Assembly: GCA_027604005.1 (NCBI GenBank)
Contig: JADGJT010000317.1
Location: forward strand, 1-27,270
Length of the DNA: 27,270 bases
From: Dinochytrium kinnereticum
Lineage: Eukaryota; Chytridiomycota; Chytridiomycetes; Chytridiales; Chytridiaceae
Direction: 5' to 3'
Of the stretch, positions 5,479 through 27,270 are shown one piece after another. Made by a program: the position numbers and the translations under genes. Under the pieces are notes generated by a model. The model made no database searches. It had not been told where the DNA came from and saw nothing but the letters and a program-made list of their open reading frames with translations. The first letter of the stretch is position 1, and every line of letters starts with the position of its first letter.

Positions 5479-6758
5479 ATGCATCAAGGACAGCATGCTC
5501 ATCCCTCTCTACAGGACTTTATCGCGGGTTGCTTGGCGGGGATGGCCCAAGTAAGAAGATCTCTAGAGCCCATGACATAGAATAACAACGATTTTTTTTT
5601 CTTATGAATAATAAATAAAGGTTGCGGTTGGACATCCTCTGGATACGGTTAAGGTCCGGTTACAGTTGGAAGGGTCTTCAAAGTTTAAAGGTTTTGTTGA
5701 ATGCTTCTTTTTTTTTTTTGTGTGTGTGAATCCAAAGTCTGAATGGAGTGAGTAGGCCCTTTAGATTGCATTTTAAAGACAGTCAAATATGAAGGCATTC
5801 TTGGTCTCTACAAAGGCATGGCCGCTCCTCTAGCCGGTACGATCCATGACTTACCTTTGCATTCACCCAAATATATATAAACTAACCAAGCGCATTTCAC
5901 AGGAATCGGTCTCGTCAACGCCGTCCTCTTCTCCGCCTACGGCTGTTGCAAAGAGATTCTCAAAGACCCGAAACACCCCGAACGACCTCTGAAGATTCGC
6001 CAAATGGCAGCAGCCGGGGCTGGAGCCGGGATCATCCAGGCATTCGTCGCGGGACCGATCGAATTGCTCAAGATCAGGTTGCAGGCTCAGTACACTGCTG
6101 AGGCGGGGAGCGCGAAAAGTCATCTAGGGCCTGTTCAGGTTGCTAGATCGTTGATTCGGGATCATGGAATTGTGAGAGGGTTGTTTCATGGCACTTGGGC
6201 GACAGTTGTGAGGGAAATTCCGGTTGGGGTTACTTCTTCTATTTTCAGCTAGTGTTTTTGTTTTGTTTTTTTCGGTGGCGAGGCATGAATGCTCAAATTG
6301 TTTTGTTTTCTTTTTTCAGGCTTATGCTGGGTTTTATGGTGGATTTGAGTATACCAAGCGTTTCCTATCATCTAAAACCCACCCGGACGCACCACTCCCT
6401 GTTTCAAGGTTAATGATTGCCGGAGCGGTTGGCGGGGTAATGTATTGGACATGCTGCTGTAAGCTCGTATCCCTTTTACCCCTCCTCACCTGTTCGTTAT
6501 CGTAGATCCTCTGGACGTTGTCAAATCGCGCATCCAACACGCTCAGCCTGGGACGCGATCCACTGCGATTTTAACGAACCTTCATGAGATTTACATGGAG
6601 GTGGGATTGAATGGATTGTTTAGAGGGTACGTTACGAGCGTTGTGAGGAGCATCCCTGCTGCAGGTATGGAGCGATGTTTATCGTTTTTTGGTGTGTCTA
6701 AATTGATGCAGCTGCTACGTTCACTGTTTATGAGTTGACTGTTCGAGCTTTAACTTAA
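5479..6758 (+). CDS. Mitochondrial carrier family (SLC25) transporter, carnitine/basic amino acid type
   Basis: Seven exons are proposed: 5479-5550, 5621-5690, 5783-5836, 5903-6222, 6320-6458, 6506-6664 and 6712-6758, about 286 aa. The three tandem carrier repeats are clear. Each carries the PX[DE]XX[KR] signature: [24 protein letters not shown] and [11 protein letters not shown]. The expected repeat elements LYKG, LFHG and LFRGY and six amphipathic membrane helices follow. Such proteins exchange solutes across the inner mitochondrial membrane. The [10 protein letters not shown] form of repeat 2 and the start [19 protein letters not shown] recall the carnitine-acylcarnitine/basic amino acid group (SLC25A20/29/45, plant BAC2), but the substrate cannot be fixed by eye. 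The exon 2/3 junction is the weak point: the model drops about nine residues of matrix loop 1. The start is the first in-frame ATG, 11 residues before LQDFIAG. Confidence 0.88.
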
Positions 6759-7120: not shown

Positions 7121-10100
7121 TTACTCTGCCTCCGCCCCAGCCGCAACGCCACCTTCCGCATCAATAGGCGGGTTAGCGAGCGCCGAAGTAGGTCGGCTGG
7201 GATGTCTCGACCCCGCCTTCGACATTGCCCTAGATGCTGCCTTGCTCCCAGTCTTACTTCCAGGCCGAGTGTTTGGCTGAGTCGACGGCTGCTGGGCCAC
7301 AGGCTGACTTTCCTCCACTTCACCTCCCTTCACACTCGCGGTAGACTGAGAACGCTTGGGCGTTTGTGCCGCTGAAGGTCTTTTCGACTCCTCCCCTGCA
7401 GCTTTAACGCTATGAGTAGATGGGGAGCGTTTGGGTGTATGGGGTTGAGCCTCTGAGTCCTCCCCACCTTTAATACTTGGAGCCCTCTTTGGCGTTTCAT
7501 CACCTCCTTTCAAACTCGACGATGACGGGACGCGTTTGGGGGTTTGAGCGGGGGACTGTCTCTCCTCACCATTCTTCATGCTTGAAGATGATGGCACACG
7601 TTTCGGGGTCTGAGCTTTCAGACTCCCAGAGGATGGCACCCTTTTCGGAGTTTGAGCCTCCGAGCCTTTGGAGGGTGTTGACGGGTTGGTCCTCCGTGAT
7701 TTATTTGGGGATTCAGGTCTCGATGCCGACGGTGTCACTGCAGCTGTTGGGGGTTTGGGAGCAGGGGTCTTGGACGGATCTCCAAAAATGATACGGATCT
7801 CTCGGTTCGCTGATGCAGGGGAATCGGATCCGTGAACGGCGTTTTGGGAGCCGTCTGTGCCAAAGAGTGCTCGGATCGAGTTGGGAGAGGTTTCGCGGGC
7901 CTTTTCGGAGTTGGTGGGACCGGCGAGGTCGCGCCAGGCTTTTATGGCTGCGGGTTTTTCGAGGATCATGGCGTAGATGGGTGCGCTGGTTTTTTTGGGG
8001 GAGGGGTGAACGGAAAACGGGTTAGATGGTTCGTATTTTTTGTTATTGTTTTTATTTGTAGAATGGAAGACCATAAACAACCAGAAAGGGAAATGTTTGG
8101 GAAGGGTAACGGGTTTAAGACCACAAACCTGCTCATCCAAGTAGTAAGCGTCTCATAAAATGCCTTCCCAACATGCTCCCCATAAAACTCTCTCGCCATC
8201 TCCTCAGACATAACAACCTCCATCTCCCTCACAACCGTGAACCCGTCCCCATGAATCCTCTCCAAGATCTCATCCTTTTTCATAGGATACACATCAGGCT
8301 TGATCAATGCAAGAGTCTGCTGAACCTCCTCATCGCCAAAGACAACCTTGATCTCTCGTTCAGCTGATGCGGGGGAATCGGATCCGTGAACGGCGTTTTG
8401 AGAGCCGTCTGTGCCAAAGAGAGCGCGGATAGAGTGTGGGGAGGTTTCGCGAGCCTTTTCGGAGTTGGTGGGGCCGGCGAGGGAGCGCCAGGCGGTGATG
8501 GCGCCTTCTTTCTCGAGGACTATGGCGTAGATTGGGGCGCTATTTAACAAACAAGAGAGTTAATGTTTGATGTACAAACGTACCCAATCTGACGATAAAG
8601 GCGATTTAAAAACTCACCTGCTCATCCAACTCGTAAGCTCCTCATAAAATCCTTTCCCCAAATGCTCCTTGTAAAACTCCCCAGCCCTCTCCTTGCTAAA
8701 CCTAACCTCCTTTTCCTCAACAACCTTAAACCCATCCTCCACAATCCTCTTTAAAATCTCATCCTTCTTATCCGGATAAGCATCCGGTTTAATCAACGCA
8801 AGCGTTCTCTCCACAGCAGCAACCTCAACGTGAGGCTCAGAAGAGTTAAAGACGACATTGATCTCTCTTTCGGCAGATGCAGGGGAATCGGATCCGTGAA
8901 CGGCGTTTTGAGAGCCGTCTGTGCCAAAGAGAGCGCGGATAGAGTGTGGGGAGGTTTCGCGAGCCTTTTCGGAGTTGGTGGGGCCGGCGAGGGAGCGCCA
9001 GGCGGTGATGGCGCCTTCTTTCTCGAGGACTATGGCGTAGATTGGGGCGCTATTTAACAAACAGGAGAGTTAATGTTTGATGTACAAACGTACCCAATCT
9101 GACGATAAAGGCGATTAAAAAACTCACCTGCTCATCCAGCTCGTAAGCTCCTCATAAAATCCTTTCCCCAAATGCTCCTTGTAAAACTCCCCAGCCCTCT
9201 CCTTGCTAAACCTAACCTCCTTTTCCTCAACAACCTTAAACCCATCCTCCACAATCCTCTTTAAAATCTCATCCTTCTTATCCGGATAAGCATCCGGTTT
9301 AATCAACGCAAGCGTTCTCTCCACCGCAGCAACCTCAACGTGAGGCTTGGAAGATCCAAACACAACATGGATCTCTCGTTCAGCAGACGCAGGGGAATCG
9401 GATCCGTGAACGGCATTTTGGGAGCCATCTGTGCCAAACCGAGCTCGGATCGAGTTGGGGGAGGTTTCGCGGGCCTTTTCGGAGTTGGTAGGACCTGCGA
9501 GGGAGCGCCAGGCGGTGATGGCGCCTTCCTTCTCGAGGATCATGGCGTAGATTGGGGCGCTTTTGGGGGGGGGAAGGGGGTGGTTGAAAAGTGGTGAGTA
9601 AATGTCAACTGAAAGTTATTCCAAAATATCAAGAACCAAAAAAAGAACAGCATGAAATAACATGAGTTTAAAATTTCAGCGTTGTGTGTTTGTTTTCGGT
9701 TTACAAAACAGACTACCAAAATCCCATCTCAAAAAAGGAAAAAGTCAAAAATTAACTAACCTGCTCATCCACCCAGTAAGTGTTTCAAAGAACGGCTTCC
9801 CAACATGCTCCTTATAAAACTCCTCCGCCATCTCCCTACTGAACGTCACCTCCCTCGCCTCAAGAATCTTAAAGCCCTCCCCAACAATCGCCTCTAAAAT
9901 CTCCTCCTTCCTCCCAGGATACGCATCCGGTTTTATTAATGCAAGCGTCCTCTCAGTCACCTCCGGTTCCGGTACAACAGCCGAAACAGTGTCACCAAAC
10001 ACCACATGAATCTCACGCGTCGCAGAGGTCGGGGAATCCGAGCCGTGGACGGCGTTTTGGGACCCGTCGGTGCCGTAGAGGGCTCTTAGGCTGTCGAAAA

Positions 10101-13100
10101 AGTTTAGGGGAGGTGTGAGGAAGGGGTGGAGGGTTACCTTTGTGGACTTTCTTGCCGGGCTTTTTCCGAGTTGGTGGGACCTGCGAGGGCTCGCCAGGCT
10201 TTTATGCCGTCGAGCTTTTCGAGCACCATGGCGTAGATCGGGGCGCTTTTTTGGGGGGTGAGAATGTGTGGTTGTGGTGAGTAAATATGCAATAAAAGTT
10301 ATTTCAAAGAATCAAGAACCGAAAAAACAGAACAGCATAAGACAACAAGAGTTTGAGATTTAAGAGGTTTGTTTGTTTGTTTTACAGTCAGAGGTCGGAA
10401 AAAAAACCATCTACAGGAACCCCAGCAAAATAAAGGAAAAAGGCAAAAAACTAACTAACCTACTCATCCACCCCGTTAGCGTCTCAAAGAATGGTTTCCC
10501 GACATGCTCCCCATAAAACTCCTTCGCCATTTCCAGCGACATAACTACCTCCTCGCCCTTAACAATCCTGAACCCCTCCCCGGCAATCCTCTCCAAAATC
10601 TCCTCCTTCCTCCCTGGATAAACATCCGGCTTAATCAACGCAAGAGTTCTCTCCATCACAGGAGTAGCAGCTTGCTTAGGTTTCTCGGCTATCCCACCGG
10701 CCATGCTGTTTCGAAGGGATCGGGTGCCGAGGACGATGGAGTTCCGGTTCGTACCTGGTCTGGAGTCGAAGAGGGCGGAGAGGGAGGCTGTGCTATAGAG
10801 GTAGTGGGGGAAGAGTTGGCTGATTTCGCGGACGGCCGTTTCGATGGTGGAGGAGCCGTGGGCGGCGTTGTGGGTTTTGTCAGTTCCGTAGATAGCTCGG
10901 ATGCTTTTTCGATGTGGGCGGGGGTGGGGGAAGTGATTGCAGTTCGAATTTCGTTTTTGTTAGCGATGGGTTAATGGTATATTGGAGGGAACACTTGGGG
11001 GCGGGGAAATGGGGGGTAGATTGATTGCTTTGTTCCCGGTGGTGTTGGCAGAATAATTGATGAATAAAGAGGTACTTACGACATCGGACGGGTTTTCTTG
11101 GCTTCGGCGGGGTCTTCGGGGCCGAGCATTTCGTTCCATGCTGCAATAACATCTTCACCCTTTAACACCAAGCAAATCGAAGGGCCGCTTTAAATGCAAA
11201 ACAAAATAAAGGTTAAAAACCACACATATTCAAATACAAAAAACAGAAACAACAACACAATGCTTCAACAAAAATAAAAGGCAAGCAAACAAAAAACACC
11301 CACCTCGTAAGAAACTCTACAACCCCCTCCTCGGTTCCCTCCCCACCGAAAAGTTCCAGAACCTTCTCCCCGTTTAAAACCGTCTCCTCCCTCTTCTGAA
11401 CCTTAAACCCTCTCCCAACAATCCTCCCAACAATCTCATCGACCTTTTCCACCGCATCTGGTTTAATGATGGCTAGAGTCTTTTGCGGGGACAAGCTGTT
11501 CTGATGACCAGATTCTCCGGGTGAGATAAAGGGCAGATCGATTAGGTTCGGGGAGTTAGTTTCGCCGAAGAGGAAGTCCAGTTCTCGCGTGGAGGACGTT
11601 TGACTGTCGGAGGCGTGAAAGGTATTCATCAGGCTGTCGGTGCCATATAGAGCTCGGAGGCTTCGTTCGTGTGCAATGGGGTAAGAGATGGCAAAAGGAG
11701 TGAGTAAAGGCTTGTTTTGGCTGGAAAATGGGAAGGCTGTGAGGGGGAAGGAGTTGTACCTTTTTGGGTGCTCCGCTTTGGCTTGTTTTGGGTCTTTGGG
11801 ACCAACGATCTCCCTCCACAGAGAAATGCAGTGAGCTTTCGACAGTTCCATGGCCAAGATAGGCGCGCTGTTTATAAGAAAAAAAAGTAAGAAAAACTAG
11901 CCCGCAACAAACAAAAAAGCCATAACTCATACCACTAAAAATTGCAAAAAAAAATCACGCAACTTACTTTGAAATATAATTGATCAAACTCGGAAACCAC
12001 TCTTTAGCCTCATGCTCTCTATAAAGCTCGGCAACCTGTTCCCTCGAAAGCCAAACCTTTTTAACCCTAACAACCCGAATCCGGTGTCGATGAATCGTCC
12101 CTAAAATCTCCTCAATAATCGAAGGGTGCATCCCATCCGGCTTAATCATCCCAAGCGTCGTCTCCGTCGGCGCGTCCCCATCCTCTTCAGTCGGATCCGT
12201 CGAGACCGAGTTCACTTGATGAGTGGATGACGAAGCGATGTTGACTCCACTAGAGGTCGCACCTTCTTTGGGAGGAGTGGGTTCGTCAAGGTCGTCGTCG
12301 TCTTCGGAGGACTTTTCGTCTTTTTTGACATCGCGGTCGCGAAGGACGTCGAGCGCGAGTTGTAGGGAGGCGATATCGTCGGTTATTTCGAGCTTTATTG
12401 TGGTTGGGGAAAAGTTGAGGGTGTTGGTTAGGATTTTTCGGAGGGAAATGTTGTGGTGAGGAAGGGATCGGGATTATTTTACCTGAGGAAGAGAGTGTCC
12501 TTGCTTGTGGAGGTCAACTTGATCTTTAATAATCTTTTCGACGAGAGGGGCGTTGGCGCCCCGAACTAATTTAACTGGGACCCCGTTCTGTTGTAGAATT
12601 AGGAAGGTTAGAAGAGGCATCTATATTTGTTGAAGTTGGAGATAAAAAACTCACATAGAAAAATATGAATAGCGGGCAAGATTTATTCCTGAAACTTTCA
12701 AAGGCAGCAATGCCATCCGACTGGGCCTAAACGTGAGAAATTGATATGGCGAGTTAGGTGGTAGAGTAAACGAGGCTAATAGGAGGGAAAAGAAATCTCT
12801 CATTACCTGGACAAAGCTGACCATATCGCCATAATCAACCTTGAGCCTTTTAAAGACATTGGTCATGGGCTCGCAAGGGCCAGCAAACTTAGCTGTAGGA
12901 AAAAAAGCACAGGCGTAATCAGCTTTCATCAAGTTCGTTGTTAAGAGGTGAAAAGAATCTATCCGTCGGGGAACGGACTTACCATATATATCAAACACTA
13001 TCTCGCGAGAACGAGGCGTTAAAAAGAGTGGAAGAAAACGACACGGTCAGCCATCGCTATCTGCCCAAAAAAGAAATATCCAAACCTTTGATCCCCGGTT

Positions 13101-13182
13101 TCTGTAGATGATTCGCAAGGTCAGCATCCTCCGTGATCAGAGTCGATGTTACAATTTCAACCCTCTTTGCGTGGGCACTCAT
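7121..13182 (-). CDS. Thioredoxin domain + seven NDK domains + TPKR-repeat tail (TXNDC3/NME8-like axonemal protein)
   Basis: Sixteen exons: 13182-13086, 12997-12983, 12892-12807, 12726-12655, 12587-12483, 12392-11968, 11867-11760, 11660-11304, 11187-11080, 10903-10460, 10245-10138, 10090-9761, 9559-9128, 9049-8618, 8539-8129, 7985-7121; 1464 aa, phases consistent throughout. Residues 1-120 are a thioredoxin fold matching TXNDC3 (VFDIYAKFAGPC, then RGANAPLVEK). An acidic linker follows. NDK domains lie near 203-333, 363-490, 542-673, 688-820, 832-964, 976-1108 and 1114-1245. All keep the IKPD lysine and the phospho-accepting His (five read NAVHGSDSP, the second NAAHGSS, the first NTFHASD). Residues 1246-1464 are a basic Ser/Pro tail. 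Known relatives (TXNDC3/NME8, sea urchin outer-arm dynein IC1) have three NDK domains and sit in axonemes, so a flagellar role is inferred. Domains 3-7 keep all the catalytic residues I could check. The start is the ATG in a GAAAATG context just before KRVEIVTSTL. Confidence 0.88.
7150..7720 (-). repeat. TPKR repeats in the C-terminal tail
   Basis: Six imperfect repeats of about 10-20 residues occur in the last exon of the thioredoxin-NDK gene. Each contains TPKR followed by Ser/Pro and usually SLK/SMK/SVK (AQTPKRVPSS three times, then ETPKRAPS, HTPKRSPS and AQTPKRSQS). A Ser-Lys-rich segment with GSKTGSK, AMSKAGS and SRHPSRP follows. TPKR fits the minimal proline-directed kinase site followed by basic residues, and such tails often bind microtubules. 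That role is inferred. Confidence 0.8.
8365..9360 (-). repeat. Near-perfect tandem duplication, 510-bp period
   Basis: Bases about 8365-8850 and 8875-9360 match at an offset of exactly 510. The match covers most of an exon, its whole intron (8540-8617 against 9050-9127) and the start of the next exon. In the intron I find only two differences, and the exon part from 8373 to 8540 looks identical to 8883-9050. Each unit encodes the second half of one NDK domain plus the first half of the next. The neighbouring copy (9375-9560) is related but clearly more diverged. Confidence 0.9.
12983..12997 (-). other. 15-nt microexon of the thioredoxin-NDK gene
   Basis: This exon encodes VFDIY plus the first base of the next Ala codon. 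It lies between an acceptor ending GATAG and a strong donor GTAAGT. It is supported because it restores both frame and length against the TXNDC3 thioredoxin domain: the beta strand before the active site would otherwise be missing. The other nearby acceptor leads at once to a stop codon. Confidence 0.75.
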
Positions 13183-22791: not shown

Positions 22792-25700
22792 ATGTCGTTT
22801 GCTTGGGATCAGATTGATGCGAGGAACAAGCAAAAGCTGGAGCGGGATCGTGAGGTGAAGGAGTTTCAAAGGAGGCAGCAGGAGGAGTTGAAGAGCAGGT
22901 TGGCGATGGCAATATAGGGCTATTCAGAACTGAGCTTTCTATTTTCAGGAAAATTGCTCAGAAGGTTAATGACAGGAATGAGTATCAAAATGCATTGGGA
23001 GGGGTTCGTATCGTTACATCAGTGGAGGGTGGACTGATGTATTTTTTCTAATTAGCGCGACCAAAGCCCTATCCCATCAATGGCCAATACCTTTCAATAT
23101 GGGTACAAAAGCGGCCTATCTCCGTCCCCAATGCCGCCAAGTCCGATCCCGTCCAACTACCCACCCATGAACTACCCTCCACCCAACATGAACGGAAGGC
23201 CAACCGACGTCAACCTCTCAAACTTTATGCGCTCTCCTGAACCAATTAAGATGGGACTGCCCGACCTCAGAAACGCCATAACAAACGGAAACTCTGACCT
23301 CCCCGCTCCAATGTTCAAAACCTTTGACCCTGGTTCAAGCGTTCCATATCCCACACCACCCATCACGGACGACATCATATCAAAGCTTAGATTCGCTGAG
23401 GAGCAGCTGCAGTCGGAGCGAAGGTCCCGGAGCTGGCTCGAAACGGAACTTCAGCTTGGGAAATCACTGGTGGCGACTCTCACGGCCAAAGTTGAGAGAA
23501 TGCAGGAGACGATGATGTCGGATAGTCAGACGATCAAGGATTTGGTGAGGCAGAGTGAGCAGACGGAGAAACGATCTGTCGCTGCTGATCAGGACATTGT
23601 CGCGAGGCTGGAGAGGGAGCAGTCAAAAATGCAGAATATCATTGCTGATCTGACTGCGAGACTCAGGATGAATGAGCAGAGGGAAGACGAGGAGGCAGAA
23701 AGACAAAAGATGATGGTGAATGAGCTCAATGATCTAAGGTATAAGGTGGAGACATTCTCTATGAAGACGCATGAGGTTGGGCAGGAGTTTCGAGCGAAAG
23801 CACGGGACTGGGAGCTAGAGTCTCATCGCGGAATGGATTTCACCCGTATGTTAAGAGATCATCAGATGGCTTTAGAAGGGCTCCAGCATGGACTCGATAG
23901 TGTATCAGACTCCACGTCCAAAAAACTTGAGATGTCGTTACTTGACCTTCGTCAGAAGATTGATCAAGAAGCAAAATCACGCTACCATTTCGAAGGAGGC
24001 ATGAGAGACCTTTTCAGTGAAGTCAAAAAGGCAGTTTCAAGCCAAGATAGAGAACTCCACGATCGGATTGAAGTCATCAAGAACCAAATCATCATGGCTA
24101 TTGACCGAGAGAGGCAGGATAGGGAGAAGACCGTTCTTCTTATCGCGGAGCAGATGAGAGCCTTGGAGCGAAACCTCCGAGATGCTCAACAATCGGCTCT
24201 TGATAAACTCGCGAGTCAGGTTGCGGGTGTTGAGGACCAATTTGCTCAAGAACGGTCTGCTCGTGGAAAGTTAGAAGTTCAGTGTCGGACTGACATGCAA
24301 GATGGTTTCAAAGCTGTTCAAGAGGTTGTGGATAAGAAAACAGGAGAGATGCAGCAATCTCAGCAAGACCTTAAGCATCATGTTGGTGGGGTTGTGAAAG
24401 CATTAAAGGAGTCTGTTATCTTGGTTGAGAAAACTGCTGACCAGAAACTTCACTCTCTTGAAGAGGTTCTACGAGCCGAAATCAAAGCTAGAATGGAGCT
24501 TGACCGGAATCTGAACGAATTACACGAGACGTTGGAGACAAAAGTCAACACGGTTGAGCGAAGAGCCTTTGAAGCCATCGCTGATGCTATCGAGGAAAGC
24601 AAAGTAACATCCGAGAAGTTGGAAGAAAGCATCCAAGCGGCTGCTGAACAGCTCGCCTCCTCAAAATCCCGAATGATGGAGGACCTCGATAAACAAGTCG
24701 CCCAAATCCGCACTCGCGTAAAAGATTTCGAAACCGAGCTCAACTCCAAATTTCGTCAACTCCAACTCTCCGCTGAGCAAATAGGTCGTGATGCACAGCA
24801 AAATCTCGAAAATGCCGAAGCGAAAATAGAGGGAAAGATCGCGGCTGCCTTTGTGAATGAAGATGAACTTGCTTCAAAGATTCGAGACGTTGAGACGCGA
24901 TGTGAATTGGTTAAAGCTGAGATGGAGGATAAACTTAACATTAGGACACTTCAAGTCGACTCGGCTTTTGAGGCGCTGAAGTCGGAGCTGGATCTCCGAT
25001 CTTCTAAGAAGGACGCTGCAGATATGGAGGTGAGGTTCGAAGCCTCTCTAGCGAACGTGCAAGCGTCAGTATCGAAACTCATGGAAGCCAACAAGGAAGT
25101 AAGGGATGAAGTGGAACTCCGATCCACGCGGAAGGAACTGGATGACATGGAGGCAAGGTCAAAACTTCTGATAGCAAATCTCCAGGCGCGGGCCGCCGAA
25201 ACAGATGCAACCGTTATAGCACTCAAAGAAGACGTCTCTGGGCGCGGATTGAAGAAGGAAATGGAAGACCTCGAATCTCGAATCAAATCATCTATTCTCG
25301 ACCTACAAGTCCGCGACGCCGATCTCGACAATCAGATAGACCGCGTCAAAGAAGATATCAGCGGGAGAGTCAGCAGAGAGCAAATGACCGTGTTTGAGGA
25401 ACGATTCCGGGACCAGATTCAGAACACTGAGCTAAGAAGCGACCGTATCGTCGAGTCGGTTTCAGAGCTTCGAGATGCCCTTGCATTGAAGGTAACTAAG
25501 ATTGAGCTCAATGAATATGAAGGCCGCTACTCGGACTCAATCACGGCGCTTGATGAACGTATTAACGACGTGAACACTGCGGTTCTCGAAACGAGGGGGG
25601 ACTTGAGCAAAGCGATACGTGATGATCTCGAGGAGATGGTTGGGAAAATCAACGCTTCCTTGGAGGAGATGCAGGTCAAGATTGATAATTACGAGGGGTC

Positions 25701-27270
25701 GATGGAGGCCATCAAGATCCGTATATCGGACGCAGATGTCGCCAGCCGCTCACGTCTCCAGCAAGTATCCGACACCCTTCAAGCCGTGATCGCAGAGCAC
25801 TCACTCTCGGTGACAGGCATGAAAGAGCTCACCTCCCAAAAACTAGAAGACTTTTCCATCCGTCTCGAAGAGATGCCTAGACAGCTCCAAGCCGCCGAAC
25901 AACAATACGAGGAATTCCGAAGAAAACTCCTCGAGTTCAACCGATCTGACAGCGAAAAGTTGAACCAGTTGTTGACCAGCATGCGGGACAGCGTCTCACA
26001 GAAAGTTTCCGAGCAGGAGTTTGACCGACTTCAATCAGAGATTCGAGGGTCTGTGCAGCGGATTTTGGCGCAGCAGGAGATGGAGCAGGTGACGGCTGAG
26101 CAGGCGAGACTTCGTTTGCAAGAGGTTGAATCGGCTTCAAAGGAACGGTACCGCGAATTAAAATCCCTGCAGGACCGTGCGATTGAGGAGCAGATGCTAT
26201 CCATTCGAATCATGAAGGAATCATCGGCCAAGAAGCTTGATGAGATGGATTCGAGAATCAGCGGGCTCCCTAAATCAATCGACCAAGCCTGGATGGAAAT
26301 TCGAAAACTTCACGCAGAAGTCGATGATCGAATTCGAGCCGATTTGATCAAGGTCGAGAGGGATTTGACTTTAATCCGAGGTGAGCTTGGGGCAAGGGTG
26401 ACCGAAAAGTCGATGGAGCTATCAATCCGTGAGGCGGTGTCGCCCGTTTCCATAAAAGTTGAGCGGATCCACCATGATCTCGACGATCTGAGGTTCATGA
26501 CAGATCGCATCAAGGCTGAGGTTAAGGCCAATGCGATGGAGAACACGAATGGGAATTCAGGTTACTCAGGGAAGCCTCCCCCCGTTCCTGTTCAGATGGG
26601 AAGCGTTCCACCAAAGAGAGATTTATTGGGCCAGGACCCGTTTAGATCTGGTCAGGAGTCAGGACCTAATGATGGTGTGCGGGGTGGCAACTATTATAAA
26701 CCCGACTTTGCAAGAGGGGGTTGGTATTATTTTTCCATCTCTTTTTTTTATCTCTCTTTTACTACCTGTTTTGCCTTCAATCCTTTTATTTCTCTTTTGG
26801 TCCACTGCATAACAAATTCTCTTTTTTTTATTTATTTATTTTTTTTTTTTTTAGATGGAAAGCTACCACCTTTGGGATATAATCAATCTAGTGAAAGACC
26901 CCAATACGGGACTATCGATCCACCTGGTAAGTGCCTATCGTCTTTAAGGCTCATTTCGCTTTACACCACTCCGTCCTCCTCTCTTACCCGCCCCTCCGCC
27001 GTCCCTTCATCACGCCTTATCTTTCTAGAACGATACCCACGAGCAGAATCTCCTCGCACTTCGAACCCGGAACCATCACGAATCACATACAGCACAGATC
27101 CGCCACCCCAACAAAACATCTTCCGCCCACCTAACAGCAGAGAAAACCAAGGTAAGACGCAAGCACTTTTTTGGTTCCTTACAAACCAAAATTCATCCAC
27201 TAAACAAACCAACCACCACACCCATCCTCCAAAAAAACATCAGCGTCGCTGGATCATCTCGTGGACGACA
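22792..27270 (+). CDS. Giant coiled-coil protein, 3' end outside the window
   Basis: Exons 22792-22898, 22949-23003, 23056-26719, 26855-26926, 27029-27151 and 27244 onward give at least 1349 aa. The start is the first ATG after an in-frame stop. The N terminus (MSFAWDQIDARNKQKL) is a short basic helix, followed by a Pro/Asn/Ser-rich stretch. From about residue 165 to 1230 the protein is one almost unbroken coiled coil, rich in E, K, R, Q and D, with no catalytic motif. Between 24946 and 25560 it shows a regular 41-residue repeat. The C-terminal exons are Pro-rich and disordered (KPPPVPVQMGSVPPK, STDPPPQQNIFRPP). Such rods are typical of centrosomal, basal-body or axonemal scaffolds. That fits a zoosporic organism but is inference, and I recognise no named family. 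Confidence 0.85.
24946..25560 (+). repeat. Five tandem 41-residue coiled-coil repeats
   Basis: The units are 24946-25068, 25069-25191, 25192-25314, 25315-25437 and 25438-25560. Each unit has a centre like ELRSTRKELDDMEAR or ISGRVSREQMTVFEER and ends in a hydrophobic-spaced segment such as IANLQAR or ITALDER. Unit length is exactly 41 residues with no gaps in my alignment. Protein identity between units is low, so the repeat is old. Similar cores recur further on (VSQKVSEQEFDRLQSEIR near 26000). Confidence 0.7.

What the first reader, a model, noticed from the sequence alone, without database searches (positions are those of the whole stretch)
7121..13182. Thioredoxin-NDK protein expanded to seven NDK domains
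Seen: one thioredoxin domain and seven NDK domains in one continuous, phase-consistent gene model. Known: the TXNDC3/NME8 and sea urchin IC1 proteins of outer dynein arms have three NDK domains. Inferred: a lineage-specific expansion that would make a longer, possibly multivalent axonemal NDK scaffold or nucleotide-handling unit. I know of no described protein of this family with seven.
Basis: partly seen in the sequence, partly recalled or inferred. Interest (0 to 1): 0.8.

Follow-up and report, generated by a model that had tools for sequence, protein, structure and literature searches.

The report
Flagellar-type protein with seven kinase domains
A chytrid fungus carries a flagellum-type protein in which one nucleotide-shuffling enzyme domain has been copied in tandem to give seven such domains in all, and fungal relatives carry from two to nine, so the number of enzyme units on what is probably a motor-attached protein has changed many times in evolution.

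Summary
The minus strand 13182-7121 carries one continuous gene model (16 exons, 15 GT-AG introns, 1464 aa): a thioredoxin domain, seven NDK domains and a basic tail. The contig is public as Dinochytrium kinnereticum, with an automatic model of the same seven-NDK gene. It is not peculiar to this species. Among chytrid relatives the usual order is Trx-NDK1-NDK2-(NDK3)n; 22 of 27 well-modelled non-Blastocladiomycota proteins have 4-9 NDK. All 6 Blastocladiomycota rows and 24 of 25 animal rows counted have 3. In the 31 well-modelled proteins the seven catalytic residues are complete in 0 of 31 first, 7 of 31 second and 84 of 91 later domains. Units of the window's array are under purifying selection. 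So an apparently active kinase unit was multiplied. The thioredoxin domain is nearest to outer-arm dynein thioredoxins, but in 39 of 39 readable non-Blastocladiomycota rows it has lost the first active-site cysteine. Best reading: a variant NME8/TXNDC3 dynein-arm protein working as a tethered NDP-kinase array. Activity and location are inferred, not shown.

The parts
7121..13182 (-). Trx-(NDK)7 gene; CDS exons 13182-13086, 12997-12983, 12892-12807, 12726-12655, 12587-12483, 12392-11968, 11867-11760, 11660-11304, 11187-11080, 10903-10460, 10245-10138, 10090-9761, 9559-9128, 9049-8618, 8539-8129, 7985-7121
   Evidence: splice model; same gene annotated publicly as P0002
12549..13137 (-). thioredoxin domain (aa 16-103, with introns), outer-arm-dynein type; active-site equivalent AGPC at 12884-12873 instead of CGPC
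   Evidence: coordinates worked out by hand from the exon table
11552..12164 (-). NDK1 (aa 202-339), catalytic set KYRKRNH (one position changed)
   Evidence: coordinates by hand
10804..11485 (-). NDK2 (aa 362-491), catalytic set KFNERNH (three positions changed)
   Evidence: coordinates by hand
9982..10653 (-). NDK3 (aa 542-678), array unit, complete set KYRTRNH
   Evidence: coordinates by hand
9343..9954 (-). NDK4 (aa 688-824), array unit, complete set KYRTRNH
   Evidence: coordinates by hand
8833..9321 (-). NDK5 (aa 832-968), array unit, complete set KYRTRNH
   Evidence: coordinates by hand
8323..8811 (-). NDK6 (aa 976-1112), array unit, complete set KYRTRNH; near-copy of NDK5 (98% aa)
   Evidence: coordinates by hand
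7769..8322 (-). NDK7 (aa 1113-1249), array unit, complete set KYRTRNH
   Evidence: coordinates by hand
7121..7768 (-). C-terminal tail rich in Ser/Thr/Pro and Lys/Arg with repeated QTPKRxPS-type motifs, plus stop codon
   Evidence: (tail as cut there: 218 residues, 35 K/R, 18 D/E, 40% S/T/P); the tail of a relative is predicted disordered
8338..9357 (-). recent tandem duplication: 510-nt units 8338-8847 and 8848-9357, 15 mismatches, intron included

Best explanation
This is a chytrid member of the NME8/TXNDC3/sea-urchin-IC1 group (thioredoxin plus NDK proteins of outer dynein arms), in a variant whose third NDK domain has been tandem-duplicated. Proposed working: the N-terminal Trx-NDK1-NDK2 half, no longer fully catalytic, is the attachment part that binds the outer-arm dynein. 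The repeated NDK3-type units form a flexible chain of active nucleoside diphosphate kinases held beside the ATP-consuming motors, exchanging phosphate between nucleotide pools and levelling local nucleotide. The basic tail may touch the microtubule. Shown here: domain content, gene continuity, family relationship, catalytic residues kept in the array and mostly lost in NDK1/2, purifying selection between units, dynein and docking-complex-like genes in the same genome. Inferred: dynein-arm location, catalytic activity, phosphate shuttling, tail function.
For: Trx domain: the best three PDB matches are human TXNDC6 in the axoneme map 8j07 and the 14 kDa and 16 kDa flagellar outer-arm dynein light chains of 8glv (Chlamydomonas, recalled), ahead of free thioredoxins. 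Trx and NDK1 both match human TXNDC6, described in PMC10886578 (passages) as binding the tail of the outermost outer-arm dynein. Position-based count in 31 filtered proteins: complete catalytic set in 0/31 first, 7/31 second, 84/91 third and later domains; 1 to 7 complete domains per protein, 5 in the window's. dN/dS (NG86) between the window's array units 0.12-0.30 in 10 of 10 pairs. Own genome has ODAD1_CC matches on two contigs (best 113 bits) and Dynein_C matches on 11 contigs. A group II NDK with the full residue set, Chondrus Nme5-like, is reported as a functional multimeric NDP kinase (PMC13256974 passages; residue set in the PMC7024210 section read). Mammalian axonemes tether AK7, AK8 and AK9, with 1, 2 and 4 catalytic domains, to radial spokes as an ATP-regeneration system (PMC11779644 section read); a review argues for local nucleotide channelling in flagella (PMC5473427 passages).
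Against: No expression, localisation or activity data. Human NME8 and NME9 are said to show no detectable NDPK activity (PMC13256974), and PMC5473427 calls the NDPK domains that expanded with flagella catalytically inactive. Nme5-type NDKs carry a Kpn-loop insertion that may prevent hexamer assembly or activity (PMC7024210). NDP kinase cannot make ATP from ADP without another NTP, so the energetic benefit is unclear. Synchytrium (P0099) has Trx and only two NDK, no array, and there NDK1 is complete, against a fixed division of labour. Some four-NDK relatives keep only one complete domain (P0036, P0041, P0043). Basidiobolus, which has no flagellum (recalled), keeps relatives with 5 and 4 NDK. 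The AlphaFold model of a relative gives folded beads with uncertain mutual orientation (pTM 0.45). The 2026 fungal flagellum survey does not name thioredoxin, TXNDC, NME or NDP kinase in its main text (PMC13358043; supplements not seen).
Confidence: 0.55

Rival explanations
1. Structural scaffold: the NDK units are spacers or binding modules in a long dynein-arm or inter-arm linker, and catalytic residues are kept for nucleotide binding or fold rather than turnover.
For: Copy number varies widely, with at least 14 changes on a 41-protein tree, as expected for a length-tunable spacer. NME8/NME9 in animals lack measured NDPK activity. The model of a relative shows beads on short linkers. Three four-NDK relatives keep only one complete domain.
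Against: 84 of 91 third and later domains keep all seven catalytic residues while NDK1 and NDK2 in the same chains mostly lose them; a pure spacer should decay likewise.
Confidence: 0.25
2. A nucleotide enzyme of the zoospore cytoplasm or another cytoskeletal structure, not part of the dynein arm.
For: Basidiobolus, a fungus without a flagellum (recalled), keeps relatives with 5 and 4 NDK (P0040, P0080). Array-type NDKs 58-69% identical occur in short database proteins of fungi without flagella (recalled), 7 of 8 of them labelled partial.
Against: The Trx domain is nearest to outer-arm dynein thioredoxins; the named Trx-bearing rows come from chytrid-type fungi and animals; the genome has dynein and ODAD1-like genes.
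Confidence: 0.15
3. The count of seven is partly wrong: an assembly or gene-model error merged separate genes or duplicated a unit.
For: NDK5 and NDK6 units are about 97% identical over 510 nt, intron included, a pattern that short-read assemblers can mishandle; the assembly has 558 contigs.
Against: The two copies differ at 15 sites; frame and intron phase run through all domains; relatives in other assemblies have similar numbers, e.g. Powellomyces 7 (longest contig 2.0 Mb) and Polychytrium 6 (1.1 Mb).
Confidence: 0.05

Closest known systems
NME8 / TXNDC3 / sea urchin IC1 / Ciona TNDK-IC (alias DNAI8)
   Same: N-terminal outer-arm-type thioredoxin followed by tandem NDK domains; Ciona (P0121) matches 99% of the Trx-NDK1-3 query at 30% identity.
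   Different: 24 of 25 animal rows counted have three NDK (the exception is a partial snail entry, P0051, with six hits) and the three animals inspected keep CGPC. Here: seven NDK, AGPC, altered NDK1/2, five complete NDK3-type units and a basic tail.
NME9 / TXNDC6 (human LC3 equivalent in the outer arm)
   Same: Trx and NDK1 align; it is modelled in the axoneme entry 8j07.
   Different: One NDK only; keeps both Trx cysteines (CGPC in the alignment).
NME7 (microtubule doublet protein) and NME5 (radial spoke)
   Same: Group II NDK domains of axonemes; the array units resemble NME7 and NME5 NDK.
   Different: NME7 has two NDK with a DM10 domain, NME5 one NDK with DPY30; neither has Trx. Separate NDK genes, one NME7-like by eye, lie elsewhere in this genome.
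AK7/AK8/AK9 of radial spokes
   Same: Tethered axonemal phosphotransferases with variable numbers of catalytic domains (1, 2, 4).
   Different: Adenylate kinases, a different fold and attachment; an analogy, not a relative.

Membership tests
NME8/TXNDC3 (TNDK-IC) | N-terminal thioredoxin domain of outer-arm type | tested here: met
   PF00085 21.2 bits, below its cut-off of 23.5; best PDB matches 8j07_v1 2e-19, 8glv_DC 3.5e-11, 8glv_DO 5.5e-11
NME8/TXNDC3 (TNDK-IC) | tandem C-terminal NDK domains in the same chain | tested here: met
   7 NDK stretches
NME8/TXNDC3 (TNDK-IC) | three NDK domains, as in animals | tested here: not met
   seven here; 24 of 25 animal rows have three; 2-9 in fungal rows. 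I therefore call it a variant, not a standard member
NME8/TXNDC3 (TNDK-IC) | CxxC thioredoxin active site | tested here: not met
   AGPC here; non-Cys (35 A, 2 S, 2 V) in 39 of 39 readable non-Blastocladiomycota rows, 30 further such rows without a readable motif; Cys in 4 of 5 readable Blastocladiomycota rows and in the 3 named animals and 1 unnamed protein inspected
NME8/TXNDC3 (TNDK-IC) | subunit of the outer dynein arm | not testable with these tools
   needs axoneme proteomics or cryo-EM; own genome has ODAD1_CC and Dynein_C matches
active NDP kinase | catalytic residues K12, Y52, R88, T94, R105, N115, H118 (numbering recalled) | tested here: met
   complete in NDK3-7; NDK1 has T94 changed to K, NDK2 has Y52, R88 and T94 changed
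active NDP kinase | phosphotransfer activity and oligomeric state | not testable with these tools
   no experiment; group II members vary

The most novel reading that the evidence does not exclude
Chytrid outer dynein arms carry a tethered NDP-kinase array of evolvable length: a largely inert Trx-NDK1-NDK2 anchor plus 1 to about 7 active kinase units, a motor-bound nucleotide buffer analogous to but independent of the radial-spoke adenylate kinases of animals, tuned by tandem duplication of one unit.
Probability: 0.4. Interest if true: 0.72.

Novelty: new variant of a known kind. Interest (0 to 1): 0.55.

Why it matters
Animal NME8 is described as lacking detectable NDP-kinase activity, and the function of the NDK domain of TXNDC6 as unknown (PMC13256974, PMC10886578; passages). 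Chytrids offer a natural series in which the same protein carries 1 to 7 catalytically complete domains while its other NDK and thioredoxin domains decay. That makes two questions testable: is the NDK part of the dynein arm an enzyme, and does its dose set beat frequency or swimming endurance of zoospores, whose flagellum must be fuelled along its length.

Tried and rejected
Separate genes: rejected because one frame with matching intron phases runs through all domains and the public model agrees. Pure assembly duplication: rejected as the main cause (and relatives). Pfam matches Amidohydro_2 and AP3B1_C had no stretch passing on its own and are taken as chance. Active dithiol thioredoxin: rejected, AGPC. 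A conserved mitochondrial-carrier neighbour: not upheld, the relative orientation differs (see Noticed in passing). Domain-by-domain orthology between animals and fungi was not resolved: on the 111-domain tree the animal NDK1, NDK2 and NDK3 each form clades of their own (bootstrap not settled, few columns). AlphaFold gave confident single domains but no usable mutual arrangement (pTM 0.45); the 50 rows shown of the Foldseek search were doublet-microtubule and radial-spoke NDK chains (NME7, NME5 types) and single NDKs, with TXNDC6 at rank 49. Papers: PMC1550239 lists a Blastocladiella NDK EST without detail (passage); PMC8887899 has none of the terms thioredoxin, dynein or nucleoside diphosphate in its main text; PMC12700831 only lists LC3/NME9 as an outer-arm subunit (passage). 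Mention in print of chytrid proteins with more than three NDK was looked for in the searches and not seen in the listings or the passages read; PMC7024210 does report Nme8-like genes in Fungi (one section and passages read; its Table 1 and supplements not seen).

Rows dropped: only 120 of 318 hits and 120 of 1926 were listed and seen. One search used 75 rows. I left out P0002 (the window's own gene), P0049, P0084, P0085, P0088 and P0098 (origin unclear), P0051-P0060 (animals), P0062-P0074 (mostly adenylate-kinase fusions, single-NDK mucoralean and unnamed rows), and all of P0100-P0164 except P0107, P0116, P0124 and P0155. Some rows kept are unnamed (P0007, P0037, P0043, P0081, P0097). The 31 rows are those with a GPC motif and three or more NDK hits, all full length; 44 of 75 were dropped by that filter, among them Synchytrium P0099 with two NDK. 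The 41 rows were chosen by hand. Which rows are Blastocladiomycota is recalled.
Full report
What is there. On the minus strand 13182-7121 a single gene can be read: 16 exons, 15 GT-AG introns of 47-214 nt, 1464 codons, no in-frame stop. Pfam finds seven NDK stretches (PF00334, E 4.8e-284) and a thioredoxin domain just under its cut-off. All seven NDK domains have a phase-2 intron at the same place, as tandem duplication of an intron-bearing unit would give; NDK1-3 share a second intron that NDK4-7 lack. The public record of the same 27,270-base contig, Dinochytrium kinnereticum (order Chytridiales, family Chytridiaceae), holds a 1468-aa protein with the same seven NDK. It skips the 15-bp and 72-bp thioredoxin exons of my model and keeps an intron inside NDK1. 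My N-terminus fits the consensus of 36 relatives better, by eye.

Is the number real. DNA comparison shows two 510-nt units differing at 15 sites (NDK5/NDK6); the other nine array pairs are 72-83% identical in DNA and 71-81% in protein. A DNA search with this unit found no match outside this contig of the 22.4-Mb assembly. Close relatives have 6 (Phlyctochytrium planicorne), 8 (P. bullatum) and 8 (Irineochytrium) NDK. Artefact is therefore unlikely, though no long read has been seen.

How far it spreads. In 75 fungal or fungus-like rows, and in the 31 of them with a thioredoxin GPC motif and only full-length NDK hits (three or more), the usual pattern is Trx-1-2-(3)n. Totals in the 31 are 3 NDK (9 proteins), 4 (8), 5 (2), 6 (5), 7 (3), 8 (3), 9 (1); 22 of the 27 that are not Blastocladiomycota have more than three. 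The nine-NDK row P0007 is an unnamed metagenome protein whose first domain is classed as NDK2-like rather than NDK1. Synchytrium P0099 has Trx and only two NDK. All 6 Blastocladiomycota rows have 3 hits, and so do 24 of 25 animal rows counted, several of them isoforms of one gene; the exception, a partial entry of the snail Bulinus (P0051), has six hits in two similar sets of three. On a tree of NDK1+NDK2 from 41 hand-chosen proteins the count changes at least 14 times. The 111-domain tree puts fungal NDK1 (18 rows, 100/98), NDK2 (18 rows, 100/97) and all array units (66 rows, 97/93) in separate clades. Some array units pair within a species (Dinochytrium 5/6, Zopfochytrium 3/4/5, Blyttiomyces 5/6, Chytriomyces hyalinus A 3/5 and 4/6, all starred); others pair by position between species (Borealophlyctis and Rhizophlyctis: unit 3 starred, units 6 and 8 not). 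So older and recent duplications seem mixed. Support inside the array clade is mostly weak, and the bootstrap had not settled.

Which domains work. Using seven active-site positions (numbering recalled from human NDPK), the first domain is complete in 0 of 31, the second in 7 of 31 and later domains in 84 of 91. Counting by sequence class in all 75 rows gives 5 of 59, 10 of 60 and 172 of 184. Synchytrium, left out of the 31 by the filter, has a complete NDK1 and an incomplete NDK2. Complete domains per protein in the 31 run from 1 to 7; three four-NDK proteins (P0036, P0041, P0043) have only one. In the window's protein NDK1 is KYRKRNH, NDK2 KFNERNH and NDK3-7 all KYRTRNH. dN/dS between its array units is 0.12-0.30 in 10 of 10 pairs; dS is near saturation for some pairs. 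The thioredoxin domain reads AGPC. Of 69 non-Blastocladiomycota rows, 39 have a readable motif and all 39 lack the first cysteine (35 A, 2 S, 2 V); 30 could not be read. In Blastocladiomycota 4 of 5 readable rows keep it. The multiplied module is thus the kinase-type domain, while the redox pair and, mostly, two NDK active sites were given up.

Where it may act. The thioredoxin domain's best PDB matches are outer-arm dynein thioredoxins of 8j07 (human) and 8glv (Chlamydomonas, recalled), ahead of free thioredoxins. Reviews read in passages place TXNDC6/LC3 on the tail of an outer-arm heavy chain (PMC10886578) and list NME8 among outer-arm subunits (PMC8754002). Xenopus Nme9 was pulled down with Dnai2 (PMC7785291 passages). 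The genome holds ODAD1_CC matches on two contigs (113 and 102 bits on C53, 38 bits on C314) and Dynein_C on 11 contigs; Dynein_C does not tell axonemal from cytoplasmic dynein. An AlphaFold model of the five-NDK relative P0016 shows a folded thioredoxin and five folded NDK, two long low-confidence linkers (146-203, 545-583), short linkers between array units and a low-confidence tail; mutual orientation is not reliable (pTM 0.45).

Mechanism. I favour an anchor-plus-array reading: Trx-NDK1-NDK2 binds the arm, and the array of intact NDK equalises nucleotide triphosphates beside the motors. Animals tether adenylate kinases with 1, 2 and 4 catalytic domains to radial spokes for local ATP regeneration (PMC11779644), so several catalytic domains on an axonemal tether have a precedent. 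Against it stand the lack of measured activity in human NME8/9, the doubtful energetic gain from an NDP kinase, the Synchytrium protein without an array, and relatives in fungi without flagella.

Known or new. A 2010 study held Nme8 to be a choanoflagellate/metazoan innovation with 2 or 3 NDK (PMC2978717, passages). A 2015 review calls the Trx-NDK intermediate chain opisthokont-specific (PMC4415241, passages), and a 2019 paper found Nme8-like genes in fungi (PMC7024210). A 2026 review states three NDK for NME8 (PMC13256974, passages). My searches showed no paper on versions with more than three NDK. Hence: new variant of a known kind.

Noticed in passing
window 5881-6738 (+): Mitochondrial-carrier-like exons lie next to the array gene in convergent orientation (read by eye). 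In Irineochytrium (P0003) a public gene model joins a carrier domain (PF00153) to an NDK array on one strand, so the neighbourhood is similar but not the same and may be coincidence.
   Followed up: partly
P0171, P0173, P0174, P0176-P0178, P0181, P0182: Short NDK proteins, 58-69% identical to the array unit, mostly from zygomycete fungi without flagella (recalled; the organism name of P0171 is cut off), 7 of 8 with all seven catalytic residues. Seven of the 8 are labelled partial and the search only takes lengths near one domain, so single-domain status is unproven.
   Followed up: partly
P0040, P0080 (Basidiobolus): Relatives with 5 and 4 NDK in a genus without a flagellum (recalled); both entries are labelled partial and hold no thioredoxin part.
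   Followed up: no
P0084, P0085, P0088: Unnamed proteins of about 560 aa with four full NDK and no room for a thioredoxin domain: arrays of more than three NDK may exist outside this family too.
   Followed up: no
P0051 (Bulinus truncatus, partial): An animal entry with six NDK hits in two similar sets of three; a gene-model fusion or a real duplication.
   Followed up: no
P0014, P0030 (Chytriomyces hyalinus); P0024, P0035 (Podochytrium sp. JEL0797): Some chytrids have two paralogues, in Chytriomyces with different NDK numbers (6 and 4); in Chytriomyces hyalinus A a two-unit block appears duplicated almost without change.
   Followed up: partly
P0099 (Synchytrium microbalum): Trx plus two NDK only, with NDK1 catalytically complete: a possible loss of the array.
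   Followed up: partly
window 23056-27270 (+): Long open frame of about 1400 codons, largely coiled-coil-like by eye, running off the window end.
   Followed up: no
L004-L007 (G000 C148, C204, C45, C138): Other NDK genes of the genome: two look like group I enzymes, C45 like NME7 with two NDK, C138 like a divergent group II NDK (by eye).
   Followed up: partly
window 7121-7768 (-): C-terminal tail with several QTPKRxPS-type repeats, reminiscent of basic Ser/Pro-rich microtubule-binding tails (recalled); similar basic tails in several relatives.
   Followed up: no
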